Positions 36,034 through 41,478 of a stretch of DNA of 47,559 bases are shown piece by piece. The stretch lies in assembly GCA_022822085.1 (NCBI GenBank), contig JAJECK010000093.1, forward strand, positions 1 to 47,559, written 5' to 3'. The notes under the pieces were generated by a model. It was not told where the DNA came from. It ran no database searches and saw only the letters and a program-made list of their open reading frames with translations. The stretch is from Candidatus Poribacteria bacterium (GTDB lineage Bacteria > Poribacteria > WGA-4E > WGA-3G). How positions within the stretch are numbered: the first letter of the stretch is position 1; the number at the start of each line of letters is the position of its first letter. A program made the translations under genes and the position numbers.

Positions 36034-38058
36034 TTAAAACGCTCGCATAAATCCAAAATCAAACTTCGGTTTCAGTGATGGTGTGAAAGGCGGATCCAGT
36101 GGGAATGCAAGTTCAAAACGGAATATACCCGCATTGCTAACTCTGGAGAGAGCACCACGCAGCTCAATTCCTATACTCCGTTTGGGTTGGCGAATATCGA
36201 ATGTATTTGTTCCATTCCAAATGTAGCCTATGTCAGTGAATAGCGTTCCACCCAATACAACGCCAAGACGAATGGGACTCTTAACAAACGGACTGGCAAT
36301 GAACGTGGCAACTGCAGCGACTGCATCGTCTATTTTTTCAAAAATAATACCACCGAAAATAGTCCGTGATTCCAATCTCAACAACATCATCTTCTCACCA
36401 CTAAACTGCCGATAGTCATATCCTCTTAATCCACTGAAAGACCCAAGAATCACTTGGCTTTCTCCGCTCAATCCAAACTGCATCTCTGCCTTGTATTGTA
36501 TCACAAATGAGTGGTAAAAATCTATGAGACCGTTCTTACGATAACCTTTAGCAACGGTATAAATATCATCACCAGATTTTAATATATCTCTTAAAAAGAT
36601 GGTGCTATGTGCTTGAAACACAGACCATTCAAAACGATTTGTGAAAATAGACTTGATGCCGATTAAAGTTTCGCTCAAAAATCTGTTGCCGATTGTCCAT
36701 CCAGACCTAACTGCTGTGCCAACAATTGATTCTCTCCGATCTGAACCGTACCAAGGTGATGCATATCCAAAAGAGACGTTGTATTCTGCCCCGGTATTAA
36801 AATCCTCAATCGGTCCCATCTTTTTAAGAAATCTTATTTTTCTGTGATAAACCCTTTTCCTTCCTACAGTGATACCCAGTCTGTTTATATTTCTGTCTAA
36901 AGGTGAGGCAGTAGAATCATCCTCCCTGTCAACTGCAACATACTTTTTACGTTGTGAACGGATCCAAAGTCCCGTATAGATTTGCTGATGTCTTTCTCCA
37001 AAATATCGCATTATATCACAGGATCCAATTTGTGCATTGCGATTAAAGATAGCTGTCTTTTCACCTGCTTCGTACCAACGCACTTGATCCACACCTTCTG
37101 AAAGGATAAATCTTGTACTCCACCGACTTTTTAGCGTGAATTGTGGGCGTTCTAACTTTACAATCCACGAGTCGCCTTCTCGTTTCTGAATATACTCACC
37201 ATCAAAATTCCAATAAGAGGCAAATAATCGCGGCATCTCGTACTGCCATTTAAAATAACTACGTGCTTGTTCATCTATTTCATGAATTCGCTCATATCGT
37301 AATTGTGTGCCGTGACCAGAACCGTTTAGATTAGTTTCTTGAACATTTAGAAGCAATGTTGAACTTTTTCGTCCTATAGGTACATCAATCGCACCAGTAA
37401 TAGTCCAATCTTCAGTAACACTCACATGAATTTTTACAGATTCCAATTCTTCATCCCAAAAAGAATCAATATTAGCATCACTAAAATATCTTTTTTGTCG
37501 TAAGATTCTTTCACTCTCTTCTTCATCGTCTTTCGTATAGATTTCTCCAGGTTTGAACAAAAGTTCTTGTAGTATCACATCATCATGTGTTTTTCTGTTT
37601 CCTTCAAGAGCAATTTCTCCAATTACGCCTTTATCTATTACAATCCCTATATGTATTTCATTTTCTACAAGCTTAATAGGATCATCTGATTTGTCAATAC
37701 GTGCATAAGTGAACCCTTTATTTTTGAAATATCGGACAATAGTATCAAGGTCCGTTTCTAATACATTTTTGTCAAAATCATTACCGACTTTTGTCCGCAT
37801 CATCCTTAGAATGTCCCTTTCATCTGGTGACGTAAAGGTGTCCTTCTCTCTGATAATAATACTCTTTACCTTACGTGCTTGATTTCCGAAAGTGGAATGT
37901 ACAATAAATAGAAACAAAAGACAGAAAATGAAACTGTAAAGAAATCCATTGACAACAGCACTTTGTGTCAATGGATGTAGCCCACGGATATTGAATGAAA
38001 TGGATTGGAACAAGTATGTGATACTCACGACGGCTAAAGCCGTGTGCTTCTTTTGCAC
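36034..38058 (-). CDS. BamA/TamA-like outer-membrane protein, start displaced by an IS element
   Basis: The first 14 codons of the present frame (from GTG 38058) come from the right end of the inserted IS element; native codons begin at about 38017. A signal-peptide-like helix (FLYSFIFCLLFLFIVH) is followed by POTRA-type domains (about 70-205, e.g. GVIGEIALEGNRKTHDDVIL, and LEESERILRQKRYF-like helices) and a long beta-rich region that ends in FGFMRAF, with the terminal Phe typical of outer-membrane barrels. The family inserts or exports proteins at the outer membrane. In-silico removal of the IS joins ATG-AAG-GGA-ATT-AT to A-TAC-TTG, giving MKGIIYLFQS and a TAATG overlap with the BatA-like gene. 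Whether the disrupted gene is still translated from GTG 38058 or TTG 38013 is open. Confidence 0.75.
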   Translation of the reverse strand: MQKKHTALAVVSITYLFQSISFNIRGLHPLTQSAVVNGFLYSFIFCLLFLFIVHSTFGNQARKVKSIIIREKDTFTSPDERDILRMMRTKVGNDFDKNVLETDLDTIVRYFKNKGFTYARIDKSDDPIKLVENEIHIGIVIDKGVIGEIALEGNRKTHDDVILQELLFKPGEIYTKDDEEESERILRQKRYFSDANIDSFWDEELESVKIHVSVTEDWTITGAIDVPIGRKSSTLLLNVQETNLNGSGHGTQLRYERIHEIDEQARSYFKWQYEMPRLFASYWNFDGEYIQKREGDSWIVKLERPQFTLKSRWSTRFILSEGVDQVRWYEAGEKTAIFNRNAQIGSCDIMRYFGERHQQIYTGLWIRSQRKKYVAVDREDDSTASPLDRNINRLGITVGRKRVYHRKIRFLKKMGPIEDFNTGAEYNVSFGYASPWYGSDRRESIVGTAVRSGWTIGNRFLSETLIGIKSIFTNRFEWSVFQAHSTIFLRDILKSGDDIYTVAKGYRKNGLIDFYHSFVIQYKAEMQFGLSGESQVILGSFSGLRGYDYRQFSGEKMMLLRLESRTIFGGIIFEKIDDAVAAVATFIASPFVKSPIRLGVVLGGTLFTDIGYIWNGTNTFDIRQPKRSIGIELRGALSRVSNAGIFRFELAFPLDPPFTPSLKPKFDFGFMRAF

Positions 38059-38155
38059 ACAACTCCCCTATGTGATTCCTGCTTCCGTCTCTCGTGCCTC
38101 TTTCCTGAACTGCTTGAGGTCTTAGTTGGACTCCACAGGCGTTTAGGCTCTCTGT
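38018..38155 (-). ncRNA. Candidate omega RNA (reRNA) of the IS605-type element
   Basis: TnpB guide RNAs come from the right end of such elements, overlapping the tnpB 3' end and running into flanking DNA that forms the guide. The 138 bases between the tnpB stop and the element end contain the terminal hairpin at 38026-38046. The predicted guide would begin atacttgttccaatcc (38017 downward), that is, the BamA-like gene itself. Inferred from family knowledge, not seen as an RNA. Confidence 0.5.
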
Positions 38156-39232
38156 CTATCCGACAGCGAGGTTTCTCATGTTTATTGCAGCGTTAACATC
38201 TCTGTCTTGTTCGTATTGACACAGGTTGCACTGATACGTTCTCTTTGAAAGTAATAACTCTTTTTTCTTATGTCCGCAGTTGCTGCATGTTTTACTTGAT
38301 GCATAAAATTGATCTGCTTCCGTGATAGGAATACCATGTGTCTCTGCCTTTGCCTTGAGTTTAGAGAGAAACCCACCTAAAGCACTATCAGATAATGCTT
38401 TTGCTAACTTTCTATTCTTTAGCATGTTTGTTACCTTTAGCGTTTCTATACAAATAGCAGAGGCATTATTGACTATATCTGTAGAGGCTTTATGGTGTGC
38501 ATCATTACGGATACAAGCAATTCGGTAATGGATGCGTGCAACTTTCGCTTTCTGCTTGAACCAGTTTTTAGACTTTCGCACTTTTCTACTCAATGAGCGT
38601 TGTGCACGCTTAAGTTTTCTCTCATATCGTTTGAGAGGTCTCGGATTATCGTATTTTATTCCATTACTCAAGGTGGCAAGTGTGTTAATACCGACATCTA
38701 TACCGATAACAGGGTGCGTTGAGGTATCAACTGCTTCGGTGTCCTCTGTCTCAACGGTAATAGATACGAACCAACGATGGGCTGTCCTTGAAATTGTAAC
38801 CTTGATAATCGGACCAACAAAACGTAACGCTTCAAACATCTTAACCCACCCTATTTTAGGTAACTTGATACGTTTATTTTCCACTTTCACAGCTTGCTCG
38901 TCTGTGGTATAAGATTGTTTTGAACCACGCCCTTTGAACTTTGGAAACTTCGCGCGTTTGGATACCCAATTCGCAATACCTTGACCAAGATTTTGAATAG
39001 CATATAACGCAGCACGCTGATCTTGGGATTGCGTCCAATCGTACTGTTTCTTTCTCTTATTGAAATTAACATTGAGAGTTTGCCACGATTGGAAGTTATC
39101 GCTATCTAATCCAGCCTTGAAATCTGATAATGCAGCGTTATATGCGAAACGTGCATAACCACATTGACTGCTAAACCAATGCTGCTGTTTATGTGTCGGA
39201 GCTAATGTTATTTTATGTGTTCTGTATGGCAA
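38156..39232 (-). CDS. tnpB: TnpB RNA-guided nuclease (IS605 OrfB)
   Basis: 358 residues from TTG 39232, which has CAGGAG six bases upstream and starts at the conserved YRTHKITLAPT; ATG 39268 would add 12 unrelated residues and lacks a Shine-Dalgarno. The RuvC triad is present: Asp179 (GIDVGINTLA), Glu263 (CIETLKV), Asp345 (DRDVNAAIN). A zinc ribbon is formed by Cys316, 319, 335 and 338 (CSNC, CNLC). It appears intact and so probably active as an omega-RNA-guided endonuclease that promotes retention of the element at the site after transposon excision. Composition resembles the neighbours. Confidence 0.93.
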   Translation of the reverse strand: MPYRTHKITLAPTHKQQHWFSSQCGYARFAYNAALSDFKAGLDSDNFQSWQTLNVNFNKRKKQYDWTQSQDQRAALYAIQNLGQGIANWVSKRAKFPKFKGRGSKQSYTTDEQAVKVENKRIKLPKIGWVKMFEALRFVGPIIKVTISRTAHRWFVSITVETEDTEAVDTSTHPVIGIDVGINTLATLSNGIKYDNPRPLKRYERKLKRAQRSLSRKVRKSKNWFKQKAKVARIHYRIACIRNDAHHKASTDIVNNASAICIETLKVTNMLKNRKLAKALSDSALGGFLSKLKAKAETHGIPITEADQFYASSKTCSNCGHKKKELLLSKRTYQCNLCQYEQDRDVNAAINMRNLAVG

Positions 39233-39399
39233 ATATGACTCCTGGAAAGAACATGACTCCCATCGCATGTGATATGGTGTGGTAGGACATGCAATCCTAC
39301 CACTGAGCCAGTCTTATGATTATACCACAAAATGTCCTCATAAGCTAAGCATTTTTGACCCACAGCTAAAGCAGTGGGATTGTTAAATAATTCCCTTCA

Positions 39400-41478
39400 T
39401 TACGTTTCACCAACAGTAGATTTACTGGCACGGTTTGATAGAAAACCTTCAAGCAGCAAGAGACAGACGGTGAGAATCAGCAATTCCCCCCATATCTCTC
39501 TGCCATGTCTTCTAATATCTAATTCCTCAGTATCCAACATACCTGTCTCATGTGTAATTTCAGTTTGAGCATCCACCCTATCAGATGCTTGTTGTAGAGA
39601 AATTGATGTCAAATTGGATTCATCAACAGGCACATTCACTGCAAAGAAATCCCGAAAAAGTCTGTCCTTCGTTTGTACATCTACTTGATAGATACCAGGT
39701 TGTTCAGATTGTTCATATCGCATCGTTCCATCTTCATCAATCGCAACAGCAGACATCGTATCTGAATCATCAGATTCAACATTTTTTATCCATGCACGTC
39801 CTCCCGGATTTTGTGGAAAATGTGCAATATAAGCATCACCAACGTTGATGTTTTTCTGTGAATCACTACGCATCACGTATAACACACTGTGTTGGATAAG
39901 TGGCAGGAAATACGGATTGACAAGTAACTCATTGCTATTGGATCGTTGTTGTAGACCGCAGTTGAAGATTAAAATGTTACTTCTCCCTTCACGACGTTCA
40001 ACGAGGAAAGGTGTTTCATCTCCAAACCGGGCAAGGACCGTCGCGTCAGAATTTGGTGTCACCGACATACTTTGGTAAAACTGCGGACCGTATTGACCAG
40101 ATAGAACATTATCAGAGAATATCTCAAATATTGGGTGTTTCTCATCATATTGACTAACTTTTTGCGGTATTTTCCATGTAATTGGTTGGCCAAACTTGAC
40201 GGGTATCCAAGCTTTATTATATGCATCAGAAGTAAATACAATTACATGCTTTCCCTGTCGGATAAACTCAAGCACTTGTGTATTCGATGCTGAAGATATT
40301 GTTGAAAGATCGGAAATAATGATGACATCATAATCTTGAAGCGGATAAGTGTCAAATTCAGCTGGAGTAATGGTAGTAGGTTGTATCATTGTCGCTTTTA
40401 GAGGAGCACTTGTAGACTGTCTATCTGATAATGGATTTAGTGCCAAAGTTAGATAATCTGCTTCATCACCCACACATAGCACACGAATTTCTCCCAGAAC
40501 GCCAAGCGCGAAATTTCTGCGGTTATCTGTCCTCAATCGATCATCTGTCAACGCTAAGTGCCCAATATGTGTCCCTGGAACTGAGAACGTATGTGTTAAC
40601 GTCGTCATAATAGATTCATCAGCGTCAGCAGAATAAGTTAGCGTTTTCTTTTTCTGTTTGTCAACATAAAATGTCAGTGTAGTCTGTGAGATGGGGGCTT
40701 CTGATTGATTACGTATCGCAGTCTTCAATTGAAAAGGTAAATCAACACCGATTAGTTGATGTGAAGGCACTATTTCTTCAATATTTGTATTATGTGCTGC
40801 CCCTTTTCTAATTGGAAGTAAAATGATACGAGATCCAGAACGATTTGGTATGACACCCCAATCTTCCCAACCATTTCGTGCAAAATCTGAAACTATGTAG
40901 AGTTCTTTGTTCTGTTGGTCGGATTCAGAGAGAATCTCGTGTGCAAGTTCAACACTCGGTTGAATGTTTGTAGAACGGTAGGATGCCTCAGCATTTTGGA
41001 TTGACGTTATTACACTGTCTATGTCTGGTGTAAGTTGACGAAAAACAGGGTGTGGAATATCCGACATCAATATGAGCGATGCAGCATCCCCGTGCCGTAG
41101 AGAACGCAATACATCTGTAGCAACCATCTTTGCTTTATCAAACCAGACCCCATCCACATCTTCATACTGCATACTGTATGAGTTGTCCAAAACAATAACC
41201 ACGTCTGTCTTTGTACGGACTGCTGCAAGTGGCAATCCGAGTGTAAGGAATGGGCGCGCCAATGCCAATGCAATGAGGGCAACAATCAACATCCGTAGCA
41301 GAAGAATTAGAAGCTGTTTCAATTGGATCCGACGAACATTTTGACGATGTGCTGCCACCAAGAACATCAAACTGCTAAAATCTACAGTTACCGCTTGCCG
41401 ACGACTCCAAAGATGTATGAGTAATGGAACTGCGGCAGCGAATAAACCGAAGAGAAATAGAGGGTTGAGAAAAGCCAA
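39400..41478 (-). CDS. BatA/VWA-domain membrane protein
   Basis: 692 residues. The N-terminus is the BatA (aerotolerance regulator N-terminal) module: a helix at 6-22, FLFGLFAAAVPLLIHLWSRR, basic residues, and a second helix at 55-75 (LLILLLRMLIVALIALALA). A von Willebrand factor A domain follows with a complete MIDAS start DNSYS (98-102), then an unassigned beta-sandwich and a GATase1-like region (LCVGDEADYLTLALN, near 325) and a C-terminal helix (residues 666-684). It would be an inner-membrane protein with a periplasmic VWA. TTG 41478 has TAGGAG nine bases upstream. It lies 57 bases after the transglutaminase gene, a pairing seen in Bat/MoxR-like loci. Confidence 0.85.
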   Translation of the reverse strand: MAFLNPLFLFGLFAAAVPLLIHLWSRRQAVTVDFSSLMFLVAAHRQNVRRIQLKQLLILLLRMLIVALIALALARPFLTLGLPLAAVRTKTDVVIVLDNSYSMQYEDVDGVWFDKAKMVATDVLRSLRHGDAASLILMSDIPHPVFRQLTPDIDSVITSIQNAEASYRSTNIQPSVELAHEILSESDQQNKELYIVSDFARNGWEDWGVIPNRSGSRIILLPIRKGAAHNTNIEEIVPSHQLIGVDLPFQLKTAIRNQSEAPISQTTLTFYVDKQKKKTLTYSADADESIMTTLTHTFSVPGTHIGHLALTDDRLRTDNRRNFALGVLGEIRVLCVGDEADYLTLALNPLSDRQSTSAPLKATMIQPTTITPAEFDTYPLQDYDVIIISDLSTISSASNTQVLEFIRQGKHVIVFTSDAYNKAWIPVKFGQPITWKIPQKVSQYDEKHPIFEIFSDNVLSGQYGPQFYQSMSVTPNSDATVLARFGDETPFLVERREGRSNILIFNCGLQQRSNSNELLVNPYFLPLIQHSVLYVMRSDSQKNINVGDAYIAHFPQNPGGRAWIKNVESDDSDTMSAVAIDEDGTMRYEQSEQPGIYQVDVQTKDRLFRDFFAVNVPVDESNLTSISLQQASDRVDAQTEITHETGMLDTEELDIRRHGREIWGELLILTVCLLLLEGFLSNRASKSTVGET

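What the first reader, a model, noticed from the sequence alone, without database searches (positions are those of the whole stretch)
38018..39400. IS605-type insertion can be excised in silico to restore a coupled BatA-BamA gene pair
The BamA-like ORF now starts inside the right end of the IS. If the element 38018-39386 is removed, the sequence ATG-AAG-GGA-ATT-AT joins A-TAC-TTG, an open frame MKGIIYLFQS that continues into the BamA-like protein. Its ATG overlaps the TAA stop of the BatA/VWA gene (TAATG), which is a typical translational coupling. Independently, the target side reads TTAT and the right tip TCAC, of the short-sequence type known for this family. Three unrelated signals agree, so the boundary call is strong. 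The insertion broke the coupling, and the right end now supplies a substitute GTG in frame.
Basis: partly seen in the sequence, partly recalled or inferred. Interest (0 to 1): 0.75.

Follow-up and report, generated by a model that had tools for sequence, protein, structure and literature searches.

The report
Jumping gene that replaces start codons
In sponge-symbiont bacteria (Poribacteria) a small TnpB-carrying mobile element inserts right at the start codons of genes and brings its own substitute start signal in the correct reading frame, so it can sit in important genes apparently without destroying them.

Summary
Copies of the element in sister genomes and 20 empty sites show that it runs 38018-39395 (1378 bp) and inserts 3' of TGAA, not TTAT. 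The ancestral junction is TA-ATG-AA|A-TAC-TTG (MKYLFQS..., not MKGIIYLFQS). The BatA stop/BamA start overlap (TAATG) is confirmed: 23 of 29 relatives have it.

In 63 copies of this family ('A'), 35 are followed by an ORF of at least 60 codons in exactly that frame (other frames 5 and 0). In sister family 'C' it is 23 of 27 (0 and 2). Hit genes include tsaD, mnmG, argG, panB, pyrE and pdxH. Right ends of A and C carry a Shine-Dalgarno-like site plus start codons in frame; two control families without that cassette show no frame bias.

I conclude that these are TnpB-only IS200/IS605-type elements that replace start codons. Boundaries, insertion pattern and frame are shown; translation from the right end and TnpB-driven homing are inferred. 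The papers searched do not report this.

The parts
38018..39395 (-). complete TnpB-only IS200/IS605-type element (family A), 1378 bp; left end GGGAATTATTTAACAATCCC, right tip GTGAGTATCAC
   Evidence: copies in sister genomes and empty sites
39396..39399 (-). target TGAA, here the TG-AA of the BamA start ATG-AA; the insertion lies directly 3' of it, with no target duplication
   Evidence: 20 empty sites in sister genomes read (A/G)TGAA|N
39398..39400 (-). original ATG start of the BamA-like gene, overlapping the BatA stop TAA (39402-39400); now opens only MKGII*
38156..39268 (-). tnpB, 370 aa, OrfB_IS605 and zinc-ribbon (TNB) domains, catalytic motifs present
38063..38069 (-). Shine-Dalgarno-like AGGGGAG in the right end, 4 nt before GTG 38058
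   Evidence: conserved in 59 of 63 family-A copies
38056..38058 (-). GTG, most upstream in-frame substitute start; leader MQKKHTALAVVSIT runs into the BamA-like protein
38026..38028 (-). tip GTG (GTG AGT ATC AC|N), present in all 63 family-A copies and in frame with genes cut at XTG-AA|N
36034..38017 (-). BamA/Omp85-like gene (POTRA + Omp85), host part, open throughout
39400..41478 (-). BatA/VWA gene, untouched by the insertion

Best explanation
This is a TnpB-only IS200/IS605-type element that inserts 3' of TGAA, and in this family mostly where that TGAA is the XTG-AA of a gene's start codon. Its right end carries an SD-like site and start codon(s) whose frame, running through the terminal hairpin to the tip (...ATC-AC|N), equals the frame of XTG-AA|N. 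The gene behind it therefore keeps an open frame with a new start and a short element-encoded leader. In the window the BamA-like gene lost MK and gained MQKKHTALAVVSIT (from GTG 38058) or MSIT (from tip GTG 38028). Shown: boundaries, target, recurrence at start codons, frame. Inferred: that ribosomes start in the right end, and that TnpB, guided by the first bases of the hit gene, keeps the element there and copies it into empty alleles.
For: Empty sites: 20 loci for 7 family-A insertions all read (A/G)TGAA|N at the annotated-like start; 15 of 25 comparable family-C sites read ATGAA|. Frame bias: family A 35/63 in frame XTG-AA|N against 5 and 0; family C 23/27 against 0 and 2. Chance: 1.1% of TGAA sites, 5.6% of TGAA outside genes, 18.5% of ATGAA outside genes are starts; P = 6e-11 (A) and 1e-13 (C) under the most generous figure. 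SD-like motif in 59/63 A and 25/27 C, against 2/34 B and 0/32 D; families B and D show no frame bias. Family C has GGAGG-N6-ATG and an open 14-codon leader to the tip. Hit genes include conserved and normally essential ones (tsaD, mnmG, argG, pyrE).
Against: No expression data. About a third of the family-A start insertions have an in-frame TAA between the SD-like site and the tip, leaving only the tip GTG, far from that SD. RNA folds bury both the SD and the tip GTG in a stable hairpin. No transposase with matching ends was found. Homing is not tested. Many copies are at contig ends of draft genomes, so the left flank is not seen for them.
Confidence: 0.84

Rival explanations
1. Survivorship only: the element inserts at any TGAA, insertions inside genes die out, and start codons merely remain as one of the harmless places because the terminal hairpin happens to end in an in-frame GTG.
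For: TGAA resembles XTG-AA starts, and A precedes TGAA in many non-start insertions too. Some copies are intergenic.
Against: Even if all insertions inside genes were lost and the target were ATGAA, 18.5% at starts is expected against 56% and 85%. Family B has the same target and tip GTG without enrichment. Family C has a complete SD-ATG-leader module.
Confidence: 0.1
2. The interrupted genes are rescued by removal of the element from RNA (an IStron-like self-splicing element) or by frequent precise DNA excision, and the right-end start is irrelevant.
For: IStrons are IS605-type elements joined to a group I intron (PMC3984707); IS200/IS605 excision is scarless in known elements (own knowledge).
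Against: No intron in the element by Rfam at a permissive threshold. Copies as short as 299 nt without tnpB sit at starts too. The SD plus open leader and the frame match would be unexplained.
Confidence: 0.04
3. The BamA-like gene and the others are simply disabled or start at internal codons (for example TTG inside the signal-peptide region), and nothing is gained from the element.
For: Internal TTG codons exist in the window gene; right-end SD may be masked by RNA structure.
Against: Genes such as tsaD, mnmG, argG and pyrE cannot easily lose their start, and their orthologues begin exactly at the hit codon. Conservation of SD and frame in families A and C but not in B and D.
Confidence: 0.07

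Closest known systems
IS200/IS605 family, TnpB-only (IS1341-like) elements; ISDra2 TnpB (8bf8, 8h1j)
   Same: TnpB with RuvC motifs and zinc ribbon, hairpin ends, no target duplication, insertion 3' of a short fixed motif
   Different: target TGAA used mainly at gene start codons; right end carries SD, start codon and in-frame leader
IStrons (IS605-type element plus group I intron)
   Same: IS605-type element that can occupy genes without destroying them (PMC3984707)
   Different: no intron here; rescue would be by a substitute start, not by splicing
Inteins, homing introns and homing endonuclease genes
   Same: target conserved sites in essential genes, spread by cutting empty alleles (analogy only, own knowledge)
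   Different: the nuclease would be RNA-guided TnpB, and host function is kept by replacing the start codon
TldR (RNA-guided repressors derived from TnpB)
   Same: TnpB relative aimed near gene starts (PMC13418256 abstract)
   Different: TldRs are reported as transcription factors; this TnpB keeps its catalytic motifs and lies in mobile copies

Membership tests
IS200/IS605 family (TnpB-only group) | TnpB/OrfB protein with OrfB_IS605 and zinc-ribbon domains | tested here: met
   PF01385 102.9 bits, PF07282 71.7 bits, PF12323 28.6 bits, all over cut-off
IS200/IS605 family (TnpB-only group) | RuvC catalytic Asp-Glu-Asp in TnpB | tested here: met
   GIDVG, IETLK and DRDVNA align with the matching motifs of solved TnpB-type nucleases
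IS200/IS605 family (TnpB-only group) | insertion 3' of a fixed short motif without target duplication or terminal inverted repeats | tested here: met
   TGAA| and TATCAC| fixed by empty sites
IS200/IS605 family (TnpB-only group) | subterminal hairpins at both ends | tested here: met
   CCCAC..GTGGG near the left end, ACGGC TTTA GCCGT near the right end, with compensating changes between copies visible; not folded as DNA
IS200/IS605 family (TnpB-only group) | TnpA (Y1 HUH transposase) that moves the element | tested here: not met
   none inside the element; 3 Y1 genes elsewhere in the genome, none with these ends among the loci examined. TnpB-only elements lack TnpA by definition, so this does not exclude membership
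IS200/IS605 family (TnpB-only group) | guide RNA from the right end and RNA-guided cleavage of empty sites | not testable with these tools
   conserved structured right end only
IStron | group I intron in the element | tested here: not met
   Rfam search of 37000-40500 at E <= 1
TldR | loss of RuvC catalytic residues | tested here: not met
   residues present

The most novel reading that the evidence does not exclude
A class of TnpB transposons specialised for start codons: the TGAA target selects XTG-AA starts; the right end serves at once as transposition hairpin, guide-RNA scaffold, ribosome binding site, start codon and in-frame leader; and the guide, being the first bases of a conserved gene, lets TnpB home into the same start codon of essential genes across lineages.
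Probability: 0.55. Interest if true: 0.93.

Novelty: new variant of a known kind. Interest (0 to 1): 0.85.

Why it matters
Mobile elements that occupy essential genes are known to survive by splicing themselves out of RNA or protein. Here the solution would be simpler: separate the start codon and bring another in the same frame. It would explain how TnpB elements occupy the starts of tsaD, mnmG or argG. It gives TnpB natural guides against conserved gene starts, so the homing model can be tested, and it warns that N-termini in these genomes may carry element-made tags.

Tried and rejected
Other copies in the own genome: only one exists. Rfam: no intron or known guide-RNA family. Idea that the tip GTG alone explains start targeting: rejected, since family B has that GTG and no bias. 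Idea that RNA folding frees the SD and the tip GTG: not supported by the predicted folds, which bury both. Search for a tnpA with the same ends: none in the loci examined. Literature searches for start-codon insertion, substitute starts or Poribacteria TnpB found nothing on the subject; the library lacks most subscription journals. One protein alignment call failed on coordinates and was replaced by direct comparison.

Full report
What was checked. The window is contig C33 of a 5.6-Mb genome whose named relatives are Candidatus Poribacteria. Between a BatA/VWA gene (39400-41478, minus strand) and a BamA/Omp85-like gene (36034 onwards, minus strand) lies an element with a 370-aa TnpB. It is the only copy in this genome.

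The ends. Copies in sister genomes stay alike up to ...GTGAGTATCAC and then diverge, so the right end at 38018 is correct. On the left, unrelated sites all continue as TGAAG...ACAATCCC, mostly TGAAGGGAATTA. Empty sites settle it. For seven copies I fetched 20 orthologous loci without the element: each reads ATGAA|N or GTGAA|N, followed by the sequence found behind the right tip. Two of these copies have both ends on the contig (panB L067, amidohydrolase L107), which fixes both junctions to the base. The element is 38018-39395, 1378 bp, target TGAA.

The ancestral gene pair. Joining the flanks gives TA-ATG-AA|A-TAC-TTG: MKYLFQSISFNIRG.... From M to the conserved NQAR this is 46 residues, the same as in the closest relative G010 (82% identity), whose locus has no insertion. 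The BatA TAA overlaps the ATG, and 23 of 29 relatives show TAATG at this place. The frame agreed because 9 is a multiple of 3.

What the other copies showed. Behind the tip of many other copies a gene continues whose first codons were cut at XTG-AA|N. I collected 63 family-A copies with at least 200 nt of 3' flank. 35 are open for at least 60 codons in the frame XTG-AA|N; the two other frames give 5 and 0. Named by me from their N-terminal sequence, the hit genes include tsaD, mnmG, argG, panB, pyrR, a ubiX-like and an NAD-synthetase-like gene, an anti-sigma factor and a sulfatase. In pyrR the flank seems to hold the gene's own ATG a codon later. Two pairs (tsaD and pyrR in G004 and G005) may be one event each; removing them leaves 33 of 61.

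A sister family. Related TnpB elements in another genus ('family C') end in GGAGG-N6-ATG AAG AAG CAA GAA TCC CAC GAC TTT AGG CGT GGG AGT ATC AA|N: a standard ribosome binding site, an ATG and an open frame through the terminal hairpin to the tip. 23 of 27 copies continue in frame into the host gene, against 0 and 2 in the other frames. Examples are pdxH, pyrE, a LeuC-like gene, an epimerase, tsaD and a lipoprotein. Of 25 comparable empty sites 15 read ATGAA| at the same spot; the others have a different start there.

Chance. In 400 kb of the closest complete relative, start codons make up 1.1% of all TGAA sites and 5.6% of those outside genes; for ATGAA outside genes it is 18.5%. Under the last, most generous figure, 35 of 63 has P = 6e-11 and 23 of 27 has P = 1e-13. 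Genes for this estimate were called by open reading frame only, and an open frame is a proxy for a start; the empty sites are the direct test.

Controls. Family B shares the last 36 nt or so of the right end, tip GTG included, but lacks the SD-like motif (2 of 34 copies); its in-frame openings are 4 of 34 against 9 and 3 (5, 3 and 9 in the slightly different count). Family D, other TnpB elements of the same genus, lacks the motif altogether (0 of 32); 2 of 32 against 4 and 3. The SD-like motif is in 59 of 63 copies of A and 25 of 27 of C. The start-directed habit thus goes with the start cassette, not with TnpB elements in general nor with the tip GTG alone.

The window copy. SD-like AGGGGAG (38069-38063), 4 nt, GTG (38058), then CAA AAG AAG CAC ACG GCT TTA GCC GTC GTG AGT ATC AC|A TAC TTG...: the present ORF of 674 aa with leader MQKKHTALAVVSIT. 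The old ATG now opens MKGII* only.

Mechanism, shown and inferred. Shown: target, ends, frame, recurrence at start codons of conserved genes, and the association with SD plus start codons in the right end. Inferred: translation from the right end. In about a third of family-A start insertions an in-frame TAA lies between the SD-like site and the tip, leaving only the tip GTG; reinitiation or a bridged SD would be needed there. Predicted RNA folds hide both SD and tip GTG in a stable hairpin, perhaps part of the guide-RNA scaffold, so unfolding by ribosomes or regulation must be assumed. Also inferred: TnpB, with catalytic motifs intact, uses the first bases of the hit gene as guide and re-enters empty alleles. 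Repeated use of the same starts (tsaD by family A in three genomes and by C in a fourth; one oxidoreductase by A and by C) fits, but does not prove it.

Known and new. By structure this is a TnpB-only IS200/IS605-type element. IStrons solve the same problem by splicing (PMC3984707), but no intron is present here. The papers searched hold nothing on start-codon replacement; that library lacks most subscription journals, so absence there is weak evidence of novelty.

Noticed in passing
L151 (G005), L183 (G004), G007:C35:2427-2604, L244 (G037): The tsaD start codon is occupied in four genomes, by family A in three and by family C in one, while G001, G003, G014, G017 and G000 are empty there: repeated use or repeated loss at one site.
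   Followed up: partly
L117 (G015) and L052 (G018): The same oxidoreductase start carries a family-A element in one genus and a family-C element in another.
   Followed up: partly
L122, L123 (G009): Two family-A copies end directly in front of an ATG (TATCAC|ATG), perhaps insertions at a TGA-ATG stop/start overlap in which the gene keeps its own start.
   Followed up: no
L067, L073, L113, L114, L119, L230: Short derivatives (283-646 nt) without a full tnpB keep both ends; several of them also sit at start codons, so the habit does not need tnpB in cis.
   Followed up: partly
family-A right ends such as L067, L121, L125: In-frame GTG-TGC-TAA mini-ORF directly after the SD-like site, 27 nt before the tip GTG; may be a reinitiation device.
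   Followed up: no
L054 (G050), L236 (G053), L238 (G037): One lipoprotein gene start carries a family-C element in three genomes.
   Followed up: no
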